41,375 nt of DNA, taken from the NCBI RefSeq assembly GCF_028595955.1, contig NZ_JANHJP010000005.1:1-41375 (forward strand). The letters are read 5' to 3'. A model generated the notes under the pieces. That model ran no database searches. It saw only the letters and a list, made by a program, of their open reading frames with translations, and was not told the DNA's origin. Source of the DNA: Columbia Basin potato purple top phytoplasma (GTDB taxonomy: Bacteria; Bacillota_I; Bacilli_A; Acholeplasmatales; Acholeplasmataceae). Shown here one piece after another: positions 25,564 to 29,544 of this stretch (position 1 is its first letter; each line of letters starts with the position of its first letter). Position numbers and translations under genes: made by a program.

Positions 25564-28500
25564 TTAAAAATCTTTTATAAAATTATCTACAAGAGCATAA
25601 TTTTGTTCTTTAACAACAATTAAATTAGTGGTTACATGAGGCAAAATATTGTAAATCCTTTGAGGAGGAATAGAAATAAAAAATTGTATTTTCAATTTAT
25701 TAAAAAAAGACATCATAGCATCTATTCTATTTTCATCCATATTATTAAAAGCTTCATCAAAAAATACTAAACATCCTTTTGATTCATTCTTTTCTATTAA
25801 TAATTGTTCAAAACAAACAGCGATAATTATATAAAAAGGAACTTGTGTTTCGCCACCTGATTTTTCTCTAAAAATTTTAGAAAAAAAAGACCAATTGCCT
25901 TCTTTATCATAAATTTTAATATCATAATTTAAATAATTACGATAATCTAAAAACTGATAAGATAAATTTTCATATTCCGAATCAAAAAACATTATTTTTT
26001 GAAATAATTCGTTTAAAAGAATTTCTTTATGAGATAAATAATCTTCATTAAATAAATTTGTTTCTTCTAATTCGTTATCTTTCATAAAAAAAGAATAATA
26101 TTGTTGATATTCAGGAATATCAGAAGGTTTAATAACAATTTGATAATAATCATTGCCAAAAGGTCTATTTACTAAAATTTTATTTAAATCTTTAATTTGT
26201 TGTTTAACTTCTAAAATACTCTTTTTTAATTTATTAATGAATTCTTCTTTAAAAATAATTTCTGTTTTTATACTTAATTCTTTGGCTTCTTGTTCGTATT
26301 TAATTAAATTTTTAGACTGAATTAAATTATATTCTTTTATAAAAAAATCTAAATTTTCTAATTTAGCTTCAACATTAAATAAATGATAATTATCAATATA
26401 TTTTTTCATAAAAGACACTAAATCTATTTCAAAAATATTTTTTTGTTTTTCCATATTTTTTAAATCTTCTTGAATACTTTTGAACATCATTTCATAATGA
26501 TTAGAATATTTATTTAAATAATTATGAAATTGTACAGAAGCAGCTTCCATATTAATAATTTCTTTTTTTTCTTCTTCGAATAATTTATTTTTATTCAAAG
26601 ATAAATCATTTTCTAAATTATGAATTTGTTTCAAATAAATATTTTTTTTATTTTTATTTTCCAAAATTTGAAATAAAATTTGTTCTAATTCTTGATTTTT
26701 TACTTTTTTGTCTTCTTGCGCTTGAATAATACTATTTTCTAATTGATTTAAATTAGGATTCAATTCTAATTTTTTTATTTTTTCTTCAATAATAATTAAA
26801 TTAGATTCTTTGTCTTTTTTTTGTTCAAACCAATCACAATAATTTAAATTTGCAATTGAAAATATTTTACTTTTTTGAATCAAAGAAATAATATTTGCAT
26901 TATTTTTAAAATAATTTTGTTTTTGGTTTAACTCTTCTTTTTGCGAATTCATTTCATTTAAAATTATATTAGCGCGTATTTTCCGAGAATTAATCCCTAT
27001 ATAAGGGACTTGATAAATTTTAGGATTTATTTTTTTAGCAGTATAATTGCTATACATCATACATAAAGGAGTAATAGAAGTTTTGTGATTTTTTAAATTT
27101 TCAATATTTAATTCGCATTTAATATTAGATAATAATATTTTAATATATTTTAAAGCATCATTATTATCACTAGTAATATGCGAAGCTAAACTATCTAAAT
27201 TATCAGAGATATCAGGAATTTTTTCAACATTGACTAAACCAACATCATAAATTTTCAATTCATCTTGTAATTTATCATAAATTTTTAAAGCAGAATCAAA
27301 ATAACGATGATCTATAATTAAATTAAACTTTCTATATCCCAAAACACCTTCTAAAGCATTTCTCCATAACTCATCTTTTACTTCTATTAATTCACATAAA
27401 GGATAGACAAAAATATTTTTATTATGTTTTTGACTTAATTTTTCTTTTAATAAATTATTTATTTTAATAAAACGATTATTAGAAGAAACATGATTTTGAG
27501 TAATCATTTCTAAATCAGAATTATTTTTATTAATGTTTTCTTTTAAAAGAATTATTTCTTTTTGTAAATTATTTTGCAAAACATTAAAACTAATTATTTT
27601 TTTAGAAAAATATTCTAATACTTCATTAATTTTTGTTTTTAATAAAAAAGAATTTTTATCTATAGATTTTAATAAAAAAGACTTAATTTTTTCAGAACTT
27701 TCCCTAAAAAAAATCTCATTAGTCAAAATAAATAAATTATCTAAAATAACAGTTTCTTCATTTAATTGTTTTATGAAAATATTTATTTTTTCCTTAAGAT
27801 CTTCGATAAACTTTTTGTCTTGAATTAAATCTTTTTGCAAAGAATGCAAAACAGAACCTAAATTATTTTGGAATTTATTAGTTTGTAATTTCAAAATATA
27901 ATCATTTAAATTATCAATATATTCGTTGTATTTTTGTTTTTGAGATGTTAAATGAACTAATTCTTTTTCAACTAATGCTTGTTTTTTAATATAAGACTCT
28001 AAATTTATTTCATTCTGTTGAACTAAAATCATTTGTTTAGTTAAAGATTGAATCTTCATTTGATCATCTATTTTTTTTAAATTTTTATTAATTTCGATAA
28101 TCGCGGACAACTCTTTTAATTTCTTTTTTTCTATTTCCATTTGAAATTCAATTTGTTTTAATTGTCGAACATTATTCTTTAAACTATTAATATTAATAGG
28201 GTTTTCTTCTAGCAAAAAATCAAAAATAAATTTTTGTAAATTCAAAGGTTTAAAAGATAATGCTTTAGGTAATATTTTTAAATATTTTACAATATTAATT
28301 TTTAAATATTTACCAACTGCATTATGATATTGTTTTTTAGTATCAAAAAAATCAAAATCTTTATTAAAAGATCTAAAATAATCGCGCATATGTTTAATAT
28401 TTCTTATTTGATTATCAAATATAAAAACATTTTTATTTAGGCGCATACTAGTAGATAAAAGATAAAATTTATCCTTTAAAATACCTCTATAAGGTAATTC

Positions 28501-28854
28501 TAAAACACATCCTAAAATAGTATATGTTTGTGTTTGTTCATCATAAAATTCCAATGCAATATGTGTAACAACATCTTGATTTCTTAAAAATTCTTTATTT
28601 TCGATGCCAAGTTTACCTTTAATATAACTTTCTAACGAACGCTTAGCATTATCATTAGCAGCTATATTGAATTTAACACTATTTTTCTCGCCTATCAAAA
28701 CATATTGCAAAGCGTCTAATAAAGTTGATTTACCTGCTCCATTTTCGCCTGAAATCAAAACATTATCTTTAATCTCTATCTCTTGATAAGAAAATAAATG
28801 CCAATTAATTAATATTATTTTAGTTAATTTTTTCATTTTAATTTTTGTCGTCAT
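25564..28854 (-). CDS. SMC-like ATPase, JetC/MksB (Wadjet) type
   Basis: A 1096-residue structural-maintenance-of-chromosomes-like ATPase. The N-terminal head has a Walker A GENGAGKST at residues 36-44, followed by LLDALQYVL and the JetC-like NIAANDNAKRSLESY. Two long coiled coils flank a hinge-like region at about 480-640 that starts near LCELIEVKDELWRNALEGVLGYR, as in MukB/JetC proteins. The C-terminal head shows the ABC signature KSGGETQ (from residue 998) and Walker B CLVFFDEAFNNMD (from about 1030). It overlaps the DUF4194 gene by 17 nt. An ATG at 28836 is an alternative start just past that gene's stop. JetA and JetD are not found nearby. It may load on DNA as a condensin-like complex. 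Wadjet restricts plasmids, but that role is not shown here. Confidence 0.9.
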   Translation of the reverse strand: MTTKIKMKKLTKIILINWHLFSYQEIEIKDNVLISGENGAGKSTLLDALQYVLIGEKNSVKFNIAANDNAKRSLESYIKGKLGIENKEFLRNQDVVTHIALEFYDEQTQTYTILGCVLELPYRGILKDKFYLLSTSMRLNKNVFIFDNQIRNIKHMRDYFRSFNKDFDFFDTKKQYHNAVGKYLKINIVKYLKILPKALSFKPLNLQKFIFDFLLEENPININSLKNNVRQLKQIEFQMEIEKKKLKELSAIIEINKNLKKIDDQMKIQSLTKQMILVQQNEINLESYIKKQALVEKELVHLTSQKQKYNEYIDNLNDYILKLQTNKFQNNLGSVLHSLQKDLIQDKKFIEDLKEKINIFIKQLNEETVILDNLFILTNEIFFRESSEKIKSFLLKSIDKNSFLLKTKINEVLEYFSKKIISFNVLQNNLQKEIILLKENINKNNSDLEMITQNHVSSNNRFIKINNLLKEKLSQKHNKNIFVYPLCELIEVKDELWRNALEGVLGYRKFNLIIDHRYFDSALKIYDKLQDELKIYDVGLVNVEKIPDISDNLDSLASHITSDNNDALKYIKILLSNIKCELNIENLKNHKTSITPLCMMYSNYTAKKINPKIYQVPYIGINSRKIRANIILNEMNSQKEELNQKQNYFKNNANIISLIQKSKIFSIANLNYCDWFEQKKDKESNLIIIEEKIKKLELNPNLNQLENSIIQAQEDKKVKNQELEQILFQILENKNKKNIYLKQIHNLENDLSLNKNKLFEEEKKEIINMEAASVQFHNYLNKYSNHYEMMFKSIQEDLKNMEKQKNIFEIDLVSFMKKYIDNYHLFNVEAKLENLDFFIKEYNLIQSKNLIKYEQEAKELSIKTEIIFKEEFINKLKKSILEVKQQIKDLNKILVNRPFGNDYYQIVIKPSDIPEYQQYYSFFMKDNELEETNLFNEDYLSHKEILLNELFQKIMFFDSEYENLSYQFLDYRNYLNYDIKIYDKEGNWSFFSKIFREKSGGETQVPFYIIIAVCFEQLLIEKNESKGCLVFFDEAFNNMDENRIDAMMSFFNKLKIQFFISIPPQRIYNILPHVTTNLIVVKEQNYALVDNFIKDF

Positions 28855-29449
28855 ACTTCAAATTTAATGACTCTGTATACTGTTTAATCATATCTAAATC
28901 AATCAAATAAAGAATAGAATTATAAATTGTTATAATTAAATCATCAGATAATTCATTTTCTATATAATTAATAATATTGAACCTTTTATACAAAGCTAAA
29001 ATGTTTTTTATTTTTTCTTTAGTCAATTTTTTGATTTCTTTATAATCAATACTATTTAATTTATGATAAATATCTTGTAAATATATTGAAATAGTACCAC
29101 TAGATTTATTTTCTCTTTTTTGTTGAAATAAAATACGTAAAATTAATAAAATTAAACTTTCTTCTTTTTTTAATTTTAATTTATTAAAATGATTTAAATT
29201 TTTAATAAAAATAACTTCATCATATTTTTTAATTTCCAATTGAAAATCAGACAACTTAAAAAAAGAAGTAAAAAGTTCTTTATATAATAAAATAAAACGA
29301 TAATCATTGGCATCTTCTGTTTTTTGAATAGTTAGATAATTTATTTGAAATAATTTATTTACAATTTTAGAAAAAATATTTTTTTCTTGTTCTGTTAAAT
29401 TTTGAAATTTGTCTGTAAAAATATATAATGCTTTTGTTTTTTGCTCCAT
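28838..29449 (-). CDS. DUF4194 protein, JetB/MksE-like partner of the SMC ATPase
   Basis: A 203-residue winged-helix-type protein of the DUF4194 (JetB/MksE) family, which in Mks/Wadjet complexes binds the kleisin. The recognisable segment is around YDEVIFIKNLNHFNKLKLKKEES followed by LILLILRILFQQKRE, the conserved aliphatic/arginine block. The rest is mixed helix. The start is the ATG at 29449, with AAAGGA 8 nt upstream; a TTG codon one position earlier is also in frame. Its 3' end overlaps the SMC gene by 17 nt, so the pair are translationally linked. The kleisin it would need (JetA/MksF) is not in the window. Confidence 0.78.
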   Translation of the reverse strand: MEQKTKALYIFTDKFQNLTEQEKNIFSKIVNKLFQINYLTIQKTEDANDYRFILLYKELFTSFFKLSDFQLEIKKYDEVIFIKNLNHFNKLKLKKEESLILLILRILFQQKRENKSSGTISIYLQDIYHKLNSIDYKEIKKLTKEKIKNILALYKRFNIINYIENELSDDLIITIYNSILYLIDLDMIKQYTESLNLKYDDKN

Positions 29450-29544
29450 CAAAAAAATCCTTTACTAATTATTAATATCGCATAATAAAAAATAATGAAA
29501 ACCAATTGATGAATTTACTACAAAATCAATCGAAATTAAAAAAA

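What the first reader, a model, noticed from the sequence alone, without database searches (positions are those of the whole stretch)
25564..29449. Two-gene SMC system: JetC/MksB-like ATPase with a DUF4194 (JetB/MksE) partner but no JetA or JetD nearby
Seen: an SMC-like ATPase with intact Walker A, signature and Walker B motifs, overlapping by 17 nt a DUF4194 protein. Known: in Wadjet (JetABCD) and MksBEF systems these two work with a kleisin (JetA/MksF), and in Wadjet also with the JetD nuclease that cuts plasmids. Neither kleisin nor nuclease is in the neighbourhood, whose upstream gene is a HAD phosphatase. Either the kleisin is elsewhere, or this reduced genome runs a minimal SMC complex. 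It could serve chromosome compaction, or be a stripped defence system kept in a plasmid- and phage-exposed parasite.
Basis: partly seen in the sequence, partly recalled or inferred. Interest (0 to 1): 0.75.

Follow-up and report, generated by a model that had tools for sequence, protein, structure and literature searches.

The report
Nuclease-free Wadjet as a phytoplasma condensin
This phytoplasma carries the DNA-folding motor of an anti-plasmid defence system (Wadjet) without its DNA-cutting part, and because it and its whole bacterial order lack the usual chromosome-folding complex, the defence motor has most likely become their chromosome condensin.

Summary
The two genes are real. The large one is an intact JetC (type I Wadjet SMC ATPase) and the small one a JetB (DUF4194, KITE), overlapping by 17 nt. 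JetD is truly missing. Across 160 genomes of the order, JetA occurs in 127, JetD in 8 (mostly in a second, complete jetABCD copy) and ScpA of Smc-ScpAB in none. In the family, 36 of 37 near-complete non-phytoplasma genomes keep JetA, a housekeeping-like pattern. In a class sample, JetA occurs in 103 of 195 ScpA-less genomes against 14 of 199 ScpA-bearing ones. Trees show vertical inheritance in the family, and the nuclease-free state arose more than once. One JetABC-positive phytoplasma carries a 4.2 kb circular plasmid. Best reading: a nuclease-free Wadjet derivative, MksBEF-like, that took over chromosome organisation from Smc-ScpAB, parallel to MukBEF in enterobacteria. The condensin function is inferred, not shown. 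Some phytoplasmas have lost even this complex.

The parts
25564..28854 (-). jetC, SMC-type ATPase (1096 aa; head - coiled coil - hinge - coiled coil - head)
   Evidence: PADLOC JetC1 PDLC00519 E 4e-263; AlphaFold2 model pLDDT 83 with SMC architecture, matching JetC and MukB structures; purifying selection
28838..29452 (-). jetB, KITE subunit (DUF4194; 203-204 aa), overlaps jetC by 17 nt
   Evidence: PF13835 E 4.5e-20, JetB1 E 5e-45; model pLDDT 87, best fold match E. coli JetB 8as8_C, then MukE
28723..28749 (-). JetC Walker A, GENGAGKST (residues 36-44)
   Evidence: G36, N38, G41, K42, S43, T44 invariant in 24 homologues
25843..25863 (-). JetC ABC signature, KSGGETQ (residues 998-1004)
   Evidence: S999-Q1004 invariant in 24 homologues
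25753..25773 (-). JetC Walker B, CLVFFDE (residues 1028-1034)
   Evidence: F1032, D1033, E1034 invariant in 24 homologues
26995..27417 (-). JetC hinge, approximately residues 480-620
   Evidence: globular mixed segment between the two coiled-coil arms in the model; weak Pfam SMC_hinge match 483-578, E 0.027; fold matches to SMC hinges

Best explanation
The two genes encode two subunits of a three-subunit SMC complex, JetA-JetB-JetC; the third gene, jetA, was moved elsewhere in the chromosome in the phytoplasma lineage. The complex descends from the core of a type I Wadjet anti-plasmid system that lost its nuclease JetD. It probably works as an ATP-driven DNA loop extruder on the chromosome (condensin role) and has replaced Smc-ScpAB in Acholeplasmatales, as MukBEF did in enterobacteria. 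Shown here: composition, absence of JetD and ScpA, intact ATPase motifs, vertical inheritance, selection to keep the proteins. Inferred: loop extrusion and chromosome organisation.
For: JetA in the same genome. JetD absent from the genome, found in 8 of 160 genomes of the order, mostly in second complete jetABCD loci. ScpA in 0 of 160, no canonical Smc over cut-off in 88 family genomes. JetA in 36/37 near-complete non-phytoplasma family genomes, against about 5-10% of bacteria for Wadjet (PMC10586767). Class: JetA in 103/195 ScpA- against 14/199 ScpA+ genomes. JetC and JetA trees: one family clade (100 and 99 SH-aLRT), so jetA of phytoplasmas is the old partner moved, not a new one. dN/dS 0.12-0.52 for all three genes. 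JetABC+ JetD- 'Ca. P. australasiaticum' NCHU2014 carries the 4,224 bp circular plasmid pEpWB. Downstream neighbours in relatives are unrelated housekeeping genes, so no other conserved fourth partner is seen.
Against: No functional data exist. Ten of 29 phytoplasma genomes have no JetA or JetB detected, and one read in full also shows no Smc, so the complex is dispensable in some lineages. ScpA absence and JetA presence are phylogenetically clustered, so the Fisher p value overstates independence. About 92 of 394 class genomes have neither.
Confidence: 0.72

Rival explanations
1. It is still an anti-plasmid or anti-phage defence system: JetABC sequesters or compacts foreign circular DNA, or recruits a nuclease encoded elsewhere.
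For: JetB and JetC carry intact motifs and all three Wadjet sensing subunits are under purifying selection; phytoplasmas meet plasmids and phages; JetABC is the size- and shape-sensing part of Wadjet (PMC10586767).
Against: No JetD or alternative conserved neighbour. A JetABC+ phytoplasma carries a 4.2 kb circular plasmid, well within Wadjet's size range; in Bacillota only 2.2% of jetD-bearing strains had plasmids (PMC12287153). Near-universal, vertically inherited single copy is unlike a defence island.
Confidence: 0.13
2. A decaying remnant of Wadjet that is on its way out in reduced genomes, with little or no present function.
For: Some phytoplasmas have lost all three genes; the operon is broken up in phytoplasmas.
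Against: Full-length reading frames, invariant ATPase residues and dN/dS clearly below 1 for JetA, JetB and JetC although the genes lie apart; retention in a 513 kb genome; kept in 36/37 near-complete non-phytoplasma relatives.
Confidence: 0.08
3. A truly two-subunit SMC complex without kleisin.
For: jetBC stand alone in the window.
Against: JetA is present in the same genome at G000:C63:9074-10342 and in 18 of 29 phytoplasma genomes searched, co-inherited with JetC.
Confidence: 0.02

Closest known systems
Wadjet type I (JetABCD; E. coli GF4-3, C. glutamicum MksBEFG)
   Same: JetA (PF18982), JetB (DUF4194) and JetC belong to the same families; best PADLOC models are JetB1 and JetC1
   Different: No JetD nuclease in this genome or nearly all of its order; jetA is separated from jetBC; a small plasmid is tolerated in a relative
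MksBEF of Pseudomonas aeruginosa
   Same: Three-subunit, nuclease-free relative of Wadjet; [quoted passage not shown]
   Different: P. aeruginosa also keeps a canonical SMC (PMC7485682); here Smc-ScpAB is absent from the whole order. The Haloplasmataceae genomes found here, with ScpA plus nuclease-free JetABC, resemble the P. aeruginosa state
MukBEF of enterobacteria
   Same: A Wadjet-like complex that replaced Smc-ScpAB as the chromosome condensin (PMC10586767)
   Different: MukB is larger (about 1486 aa, from general knowledge) and sequence-divergent; phmmer gives only a weak match
Smc-ScpAB of mycoplasmas and Bacillus
   Same: Presumed cellular role
   Different: No ScpA in 160 genomes and no Smc over cut-off in 88; ScpA is found readily in other reduced genomes of the class, apparently mycoplasma-like ones with TGA inside the frame

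Membership tests
Wadjet type I | JetC SMC ATPase of the JetC1 type with intact ATPase motifs | tested here: met
   PDLC00519 E 4e-263; motifs invariant
Wadjet type I | JetB (DUF4194) KITE subunit | tested here: met
   PF13835 and JetB1 models; fold match to JetB 8as8_C
Wadjet type I | JetA kleisin (PF18982) | tested here: met
   G000:C63:9074-10342, E 4.6e-58, not adjacent
Wadjet type I | JetD Toprim nuclease (PF09983) | tested here: not met
   None in G000; 8/160 in the order, mostly with second jetABC copies. The draft is about 90% complete, but relatives with single-contig chromosomes lack it too
Wadjet type I | Cuts or excludes small circular plasmids | not testable with these tools
   Indirect: pEpWB, 4,224 bp, coexists with JetABC in NCHU2014
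MksBEF-type nuclease-free condensin | SMC + kleisin + KITE present, no nuclease | tested here: met
MksBEF-type nuclease-free condensin | Organises the chromosome | not testable with these tools
   Inferred from absence of Smc-ScpAB and near-universal retention
Smc-ScpAB | ScpA kleisin | tested here: not met
   0/160 genomes of the order
Smc-ScpAB | Canonical Smc ATPase | tested here: not met
   TIGR02168: no match over cut-off in 88 genomes, only low-scoring partial matches that look like coiled-coil stretches; at most 6 candidates per genome were scored
RecN / Rad50 (SbcC) | Best family match of the large protein | tested here: not met
   JetC1 is far better than any other model; no RecN or Rad50 family among the matches of the general libraries, only the generic SbcC/RAD50-like Walker B domain

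The most novel reading that the evidence does not exclude
Nuclease-free Wadjet cores have become the only chromosome condensin several times independently in one branch of Bacilli (Acholeplasmataceae, Anaeroplasmataceae and uncultured families), with Haloplasmataceae showing the intermediate state (Smc-ScpAB, nuclease-free JetABC and full JetABCD together), and some phytoplasmas have then lost every SMC complex.
Probability: 0.5. Interest if true: 0.82.

Novelty: new variant of a known kind. Interest (0 to 1): 0.7.

Why it matters
It turns the idea that defence SMC complexes gave rise to housekeeping condensins (proposed for MukBEF and MksBEF) into something testable in a second, independent lineage, with intermediate states still alive. 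It also implies that plant-pathogenic phytoplasmas and Acholeplasma organise chromosomes with machinery different from that of mycoplasmas, and that defence-system catalogues would miscount these loci as partial Wadjets. I found no paper in the open library that reports it; subscription papers and preprints are not held, so prior notice cannot be excluded.

Tried and rejected
DUF3375 (PF11855) as JetA probe: finds nothing convincing, wrong family for type I. phmmer of JetA and JetB against PDB sequences: no useful match. A hidden fourth partner behind jetC: the neighbours differ by lineage (PEP-utilising enzyme, C1 peptidase, SepF, nucleotidyltransferase, RNA methyltransferase), rejected. A single origin of all nuclease-free JetC: rejected by AU test (p about 1e-54; for Acholeplasmataceae plus the Anaeroplasmataceae group p 2e-7 with JetC, 0.006 with JetA), with the caveat that groups were chosen after seeing a tree and that quick LG+G4 trees, with long rows dropped for JetC, were used. 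JetD or JetA remnants in the window: none.

Full report
WHAT IS THERE. The reported genes exist at the reported place. jetC spans 25564-28854 on the minus strand (1096 aa) and jetB 28838-29449 (ATG) or 29452 (TTG); they overlap by 17 nt. JetC matches the PADLOC JetC1 model over its whole length at E 4e-263, JetB the JetB1 model at 5e-45 and Pfam DUF4194 at 4.5e-20. The AlphaFold2 models fit: JetC (pLDDT 83) shows head, coiled coil, hinge, coiled coil, head and matches JetC and MukB structures; JetB (pLDDT 87) matches E. coli JetB and MukE. The ATPase motifs are invariant in 24 homologues. Neighbours are core genes: FakA-like, HAD phosphatase, signal peptidase, uracil-DNA glycosylase, RNase HIII, and farther out gyrase A and B, EF-Ts, S2, so this is ordinary chromosome, not a mobile island.

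THE MISSING PARTNER. Type I JetA belongs to Pfam PF18982, not DUF3375. PF18982 finds JetA in the same genome on another contig, G000:C63:9074-10342, E 4.6e-58; DUF3375 finds nothing. In the non-phytoplasma members of the family examined, jetA-jetB-jetC form a tight operon; in the phytoplasmas examined jetA lies apart, 86 to 346 kb away on five main chromosome contigs. JetA of phytoplasmas groups with JetA of Acholeplasmataceae (SH-aLRT 99), as JetC does (100), so the operon was split, not rebuilt from another source. Relatives bearing names include 'Ca. P. vitis', pruni, oryzae, sacchari, pini, citri, australasiaticum and Acholeplasma laidlawii and granularum.

NO NUCLEASE. JetD (PF09983) is absent from this genome and found in 8 of 160 genomes of the order. 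In five of these (G023, G096, G109, G111, G121) it sits in a second, full jetABCD locus beside the nuclease-free copy; G151 has a single full locus; G152 and G133 carry partial loci. What follows jetC in the relatives sampled is an unrelated gene that changes with lineage.

NO SMC-ScpAB. ScpA is absent from 160 of 160 genomes of the order while the same search finds it in 199 of 394 genomes of the class, including small genomes whose ScpA frames hold TGA codons, as expected of mycoplasmas. The full-length Smc model has no match over its cut-off in the 88 family genomes; that search scored at most six candidates per genome. JetA is found in 127 of 160 order genomes and in 36 of 37 family genomes outside phytoplasmas that are at least 90% complete. 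In the class sample JetA occurs in 103 of 195 genomes without ScpA and 14 of 199 with it (odds ratio 14.8, Fisher p 5e-25, inflated by shared ancestry). Among loci read around jetC, 60 of 67 in ScpA-less genomes lack an adjacent jetD against 6 of 16 in ScpA-bearing genomes. These loci were chosen by me, several per family, and are not independent.

HISTORY. In the JetC tree the nuclease-free proteins form several clades: Acholeplasmataceae (100), Anaeroplasmataceae with related families (100), a third group of uncultured families (100), one family f7 (100) and Haloplasmataceae (not one clade). Uniting them all is rejected. Haloplasmataceae (named through) keep ScpA and hold nuclease-free JetABC; three of the genomes sampled (G186, G195, G211) hold full JetABCD as well. 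This looks like an intermediate state, though direction is inferred and other orders of JetD loss and gain are not formally excluded.

SELECTION AND USE. Pairwise dN/dS (Nei-Gojobori) among four phytoplasmas is 0.12-0.33 for JetB, 0.16-0.44 for JetC and 0.18-0.52 for JetA: all three are held by purifying selection even though they lie apart. 'Ca. P. australasiaticum' subsp. taiwanense NCHU2014 has JetABC without JetD and a 4,224 bp circular plasmid, pEpWB. A full Wadjet would be expected to exclude such a plasmid; in Bacillota only 2.2% of jetD-bearing strains had plasmids (PMC12287153).

MECHANISM. From the known biochemistry of Wadjet (PMC10586767; PMC12287153), JetABC is thought to extrude DNA loops with ATP and JetD to cut when the motor has run round a small circle and stalls. 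Without JetD the same motor would compact and separate chromosomes. The first part is shown or modelled for Wadjet elsewhere, not here; the second is inference, supported by the precedent of MksBEF in P. aeruginosa and of MukBEF replacing Smc-ScpAB in enterobacteria, both as described in that review.

LIMITS. Ten of 29 phytoplasma genomes lack JetA and JetB; one of them, a single-contig 704,525 bp chromosome read in full, has no JetA, JetB or JetC homologue and, among the ten candidate ATPases and coiled-coil proteins scanned, only UvrA and an ABC ATPase touch the SMC_N model, so it appears to have no SMC complex at all. About 92 of 394 class genomes have neither ScpA nor PF18982 JetA; what they use is unknown. 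All function is inferred from sequence.

Noticed in passing
G065 (L267-L302, single contig of 704,525 bp): A phytoplasma genome with neither JetABC nor Smc-ScpAB; it may live without any SMC complex. Nine other phytoplasma genomes also lack JetA and JetB; the Jet-negative genomes are on average larger (median about 700 against 513 kb, rounded sizes).
   Followed up: partly
L147, L149, L151, L152, L154 (Haloplasmataceae): Genomes with ScpA that also hold a nuclease-free JetABC; three of them hold a full JetABCD too: three SMC systems in one cell.
   Followed up: partly
L134, L138-L142 and other Anaeroplasmataceae loci: A short gene (110-114 aa; SepF-like, PF04472, in the one tested) sits directly behind jetC, hinting at a link with cell division.
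   Followed up: no
   Followed up: partly
class sample: About 92 of 394 near-complete Bacilli genomes have neither ScpA nor type I JetA; their chromosome-folding machinery is unidentified.
   Followed up: no
   Followed up: partly
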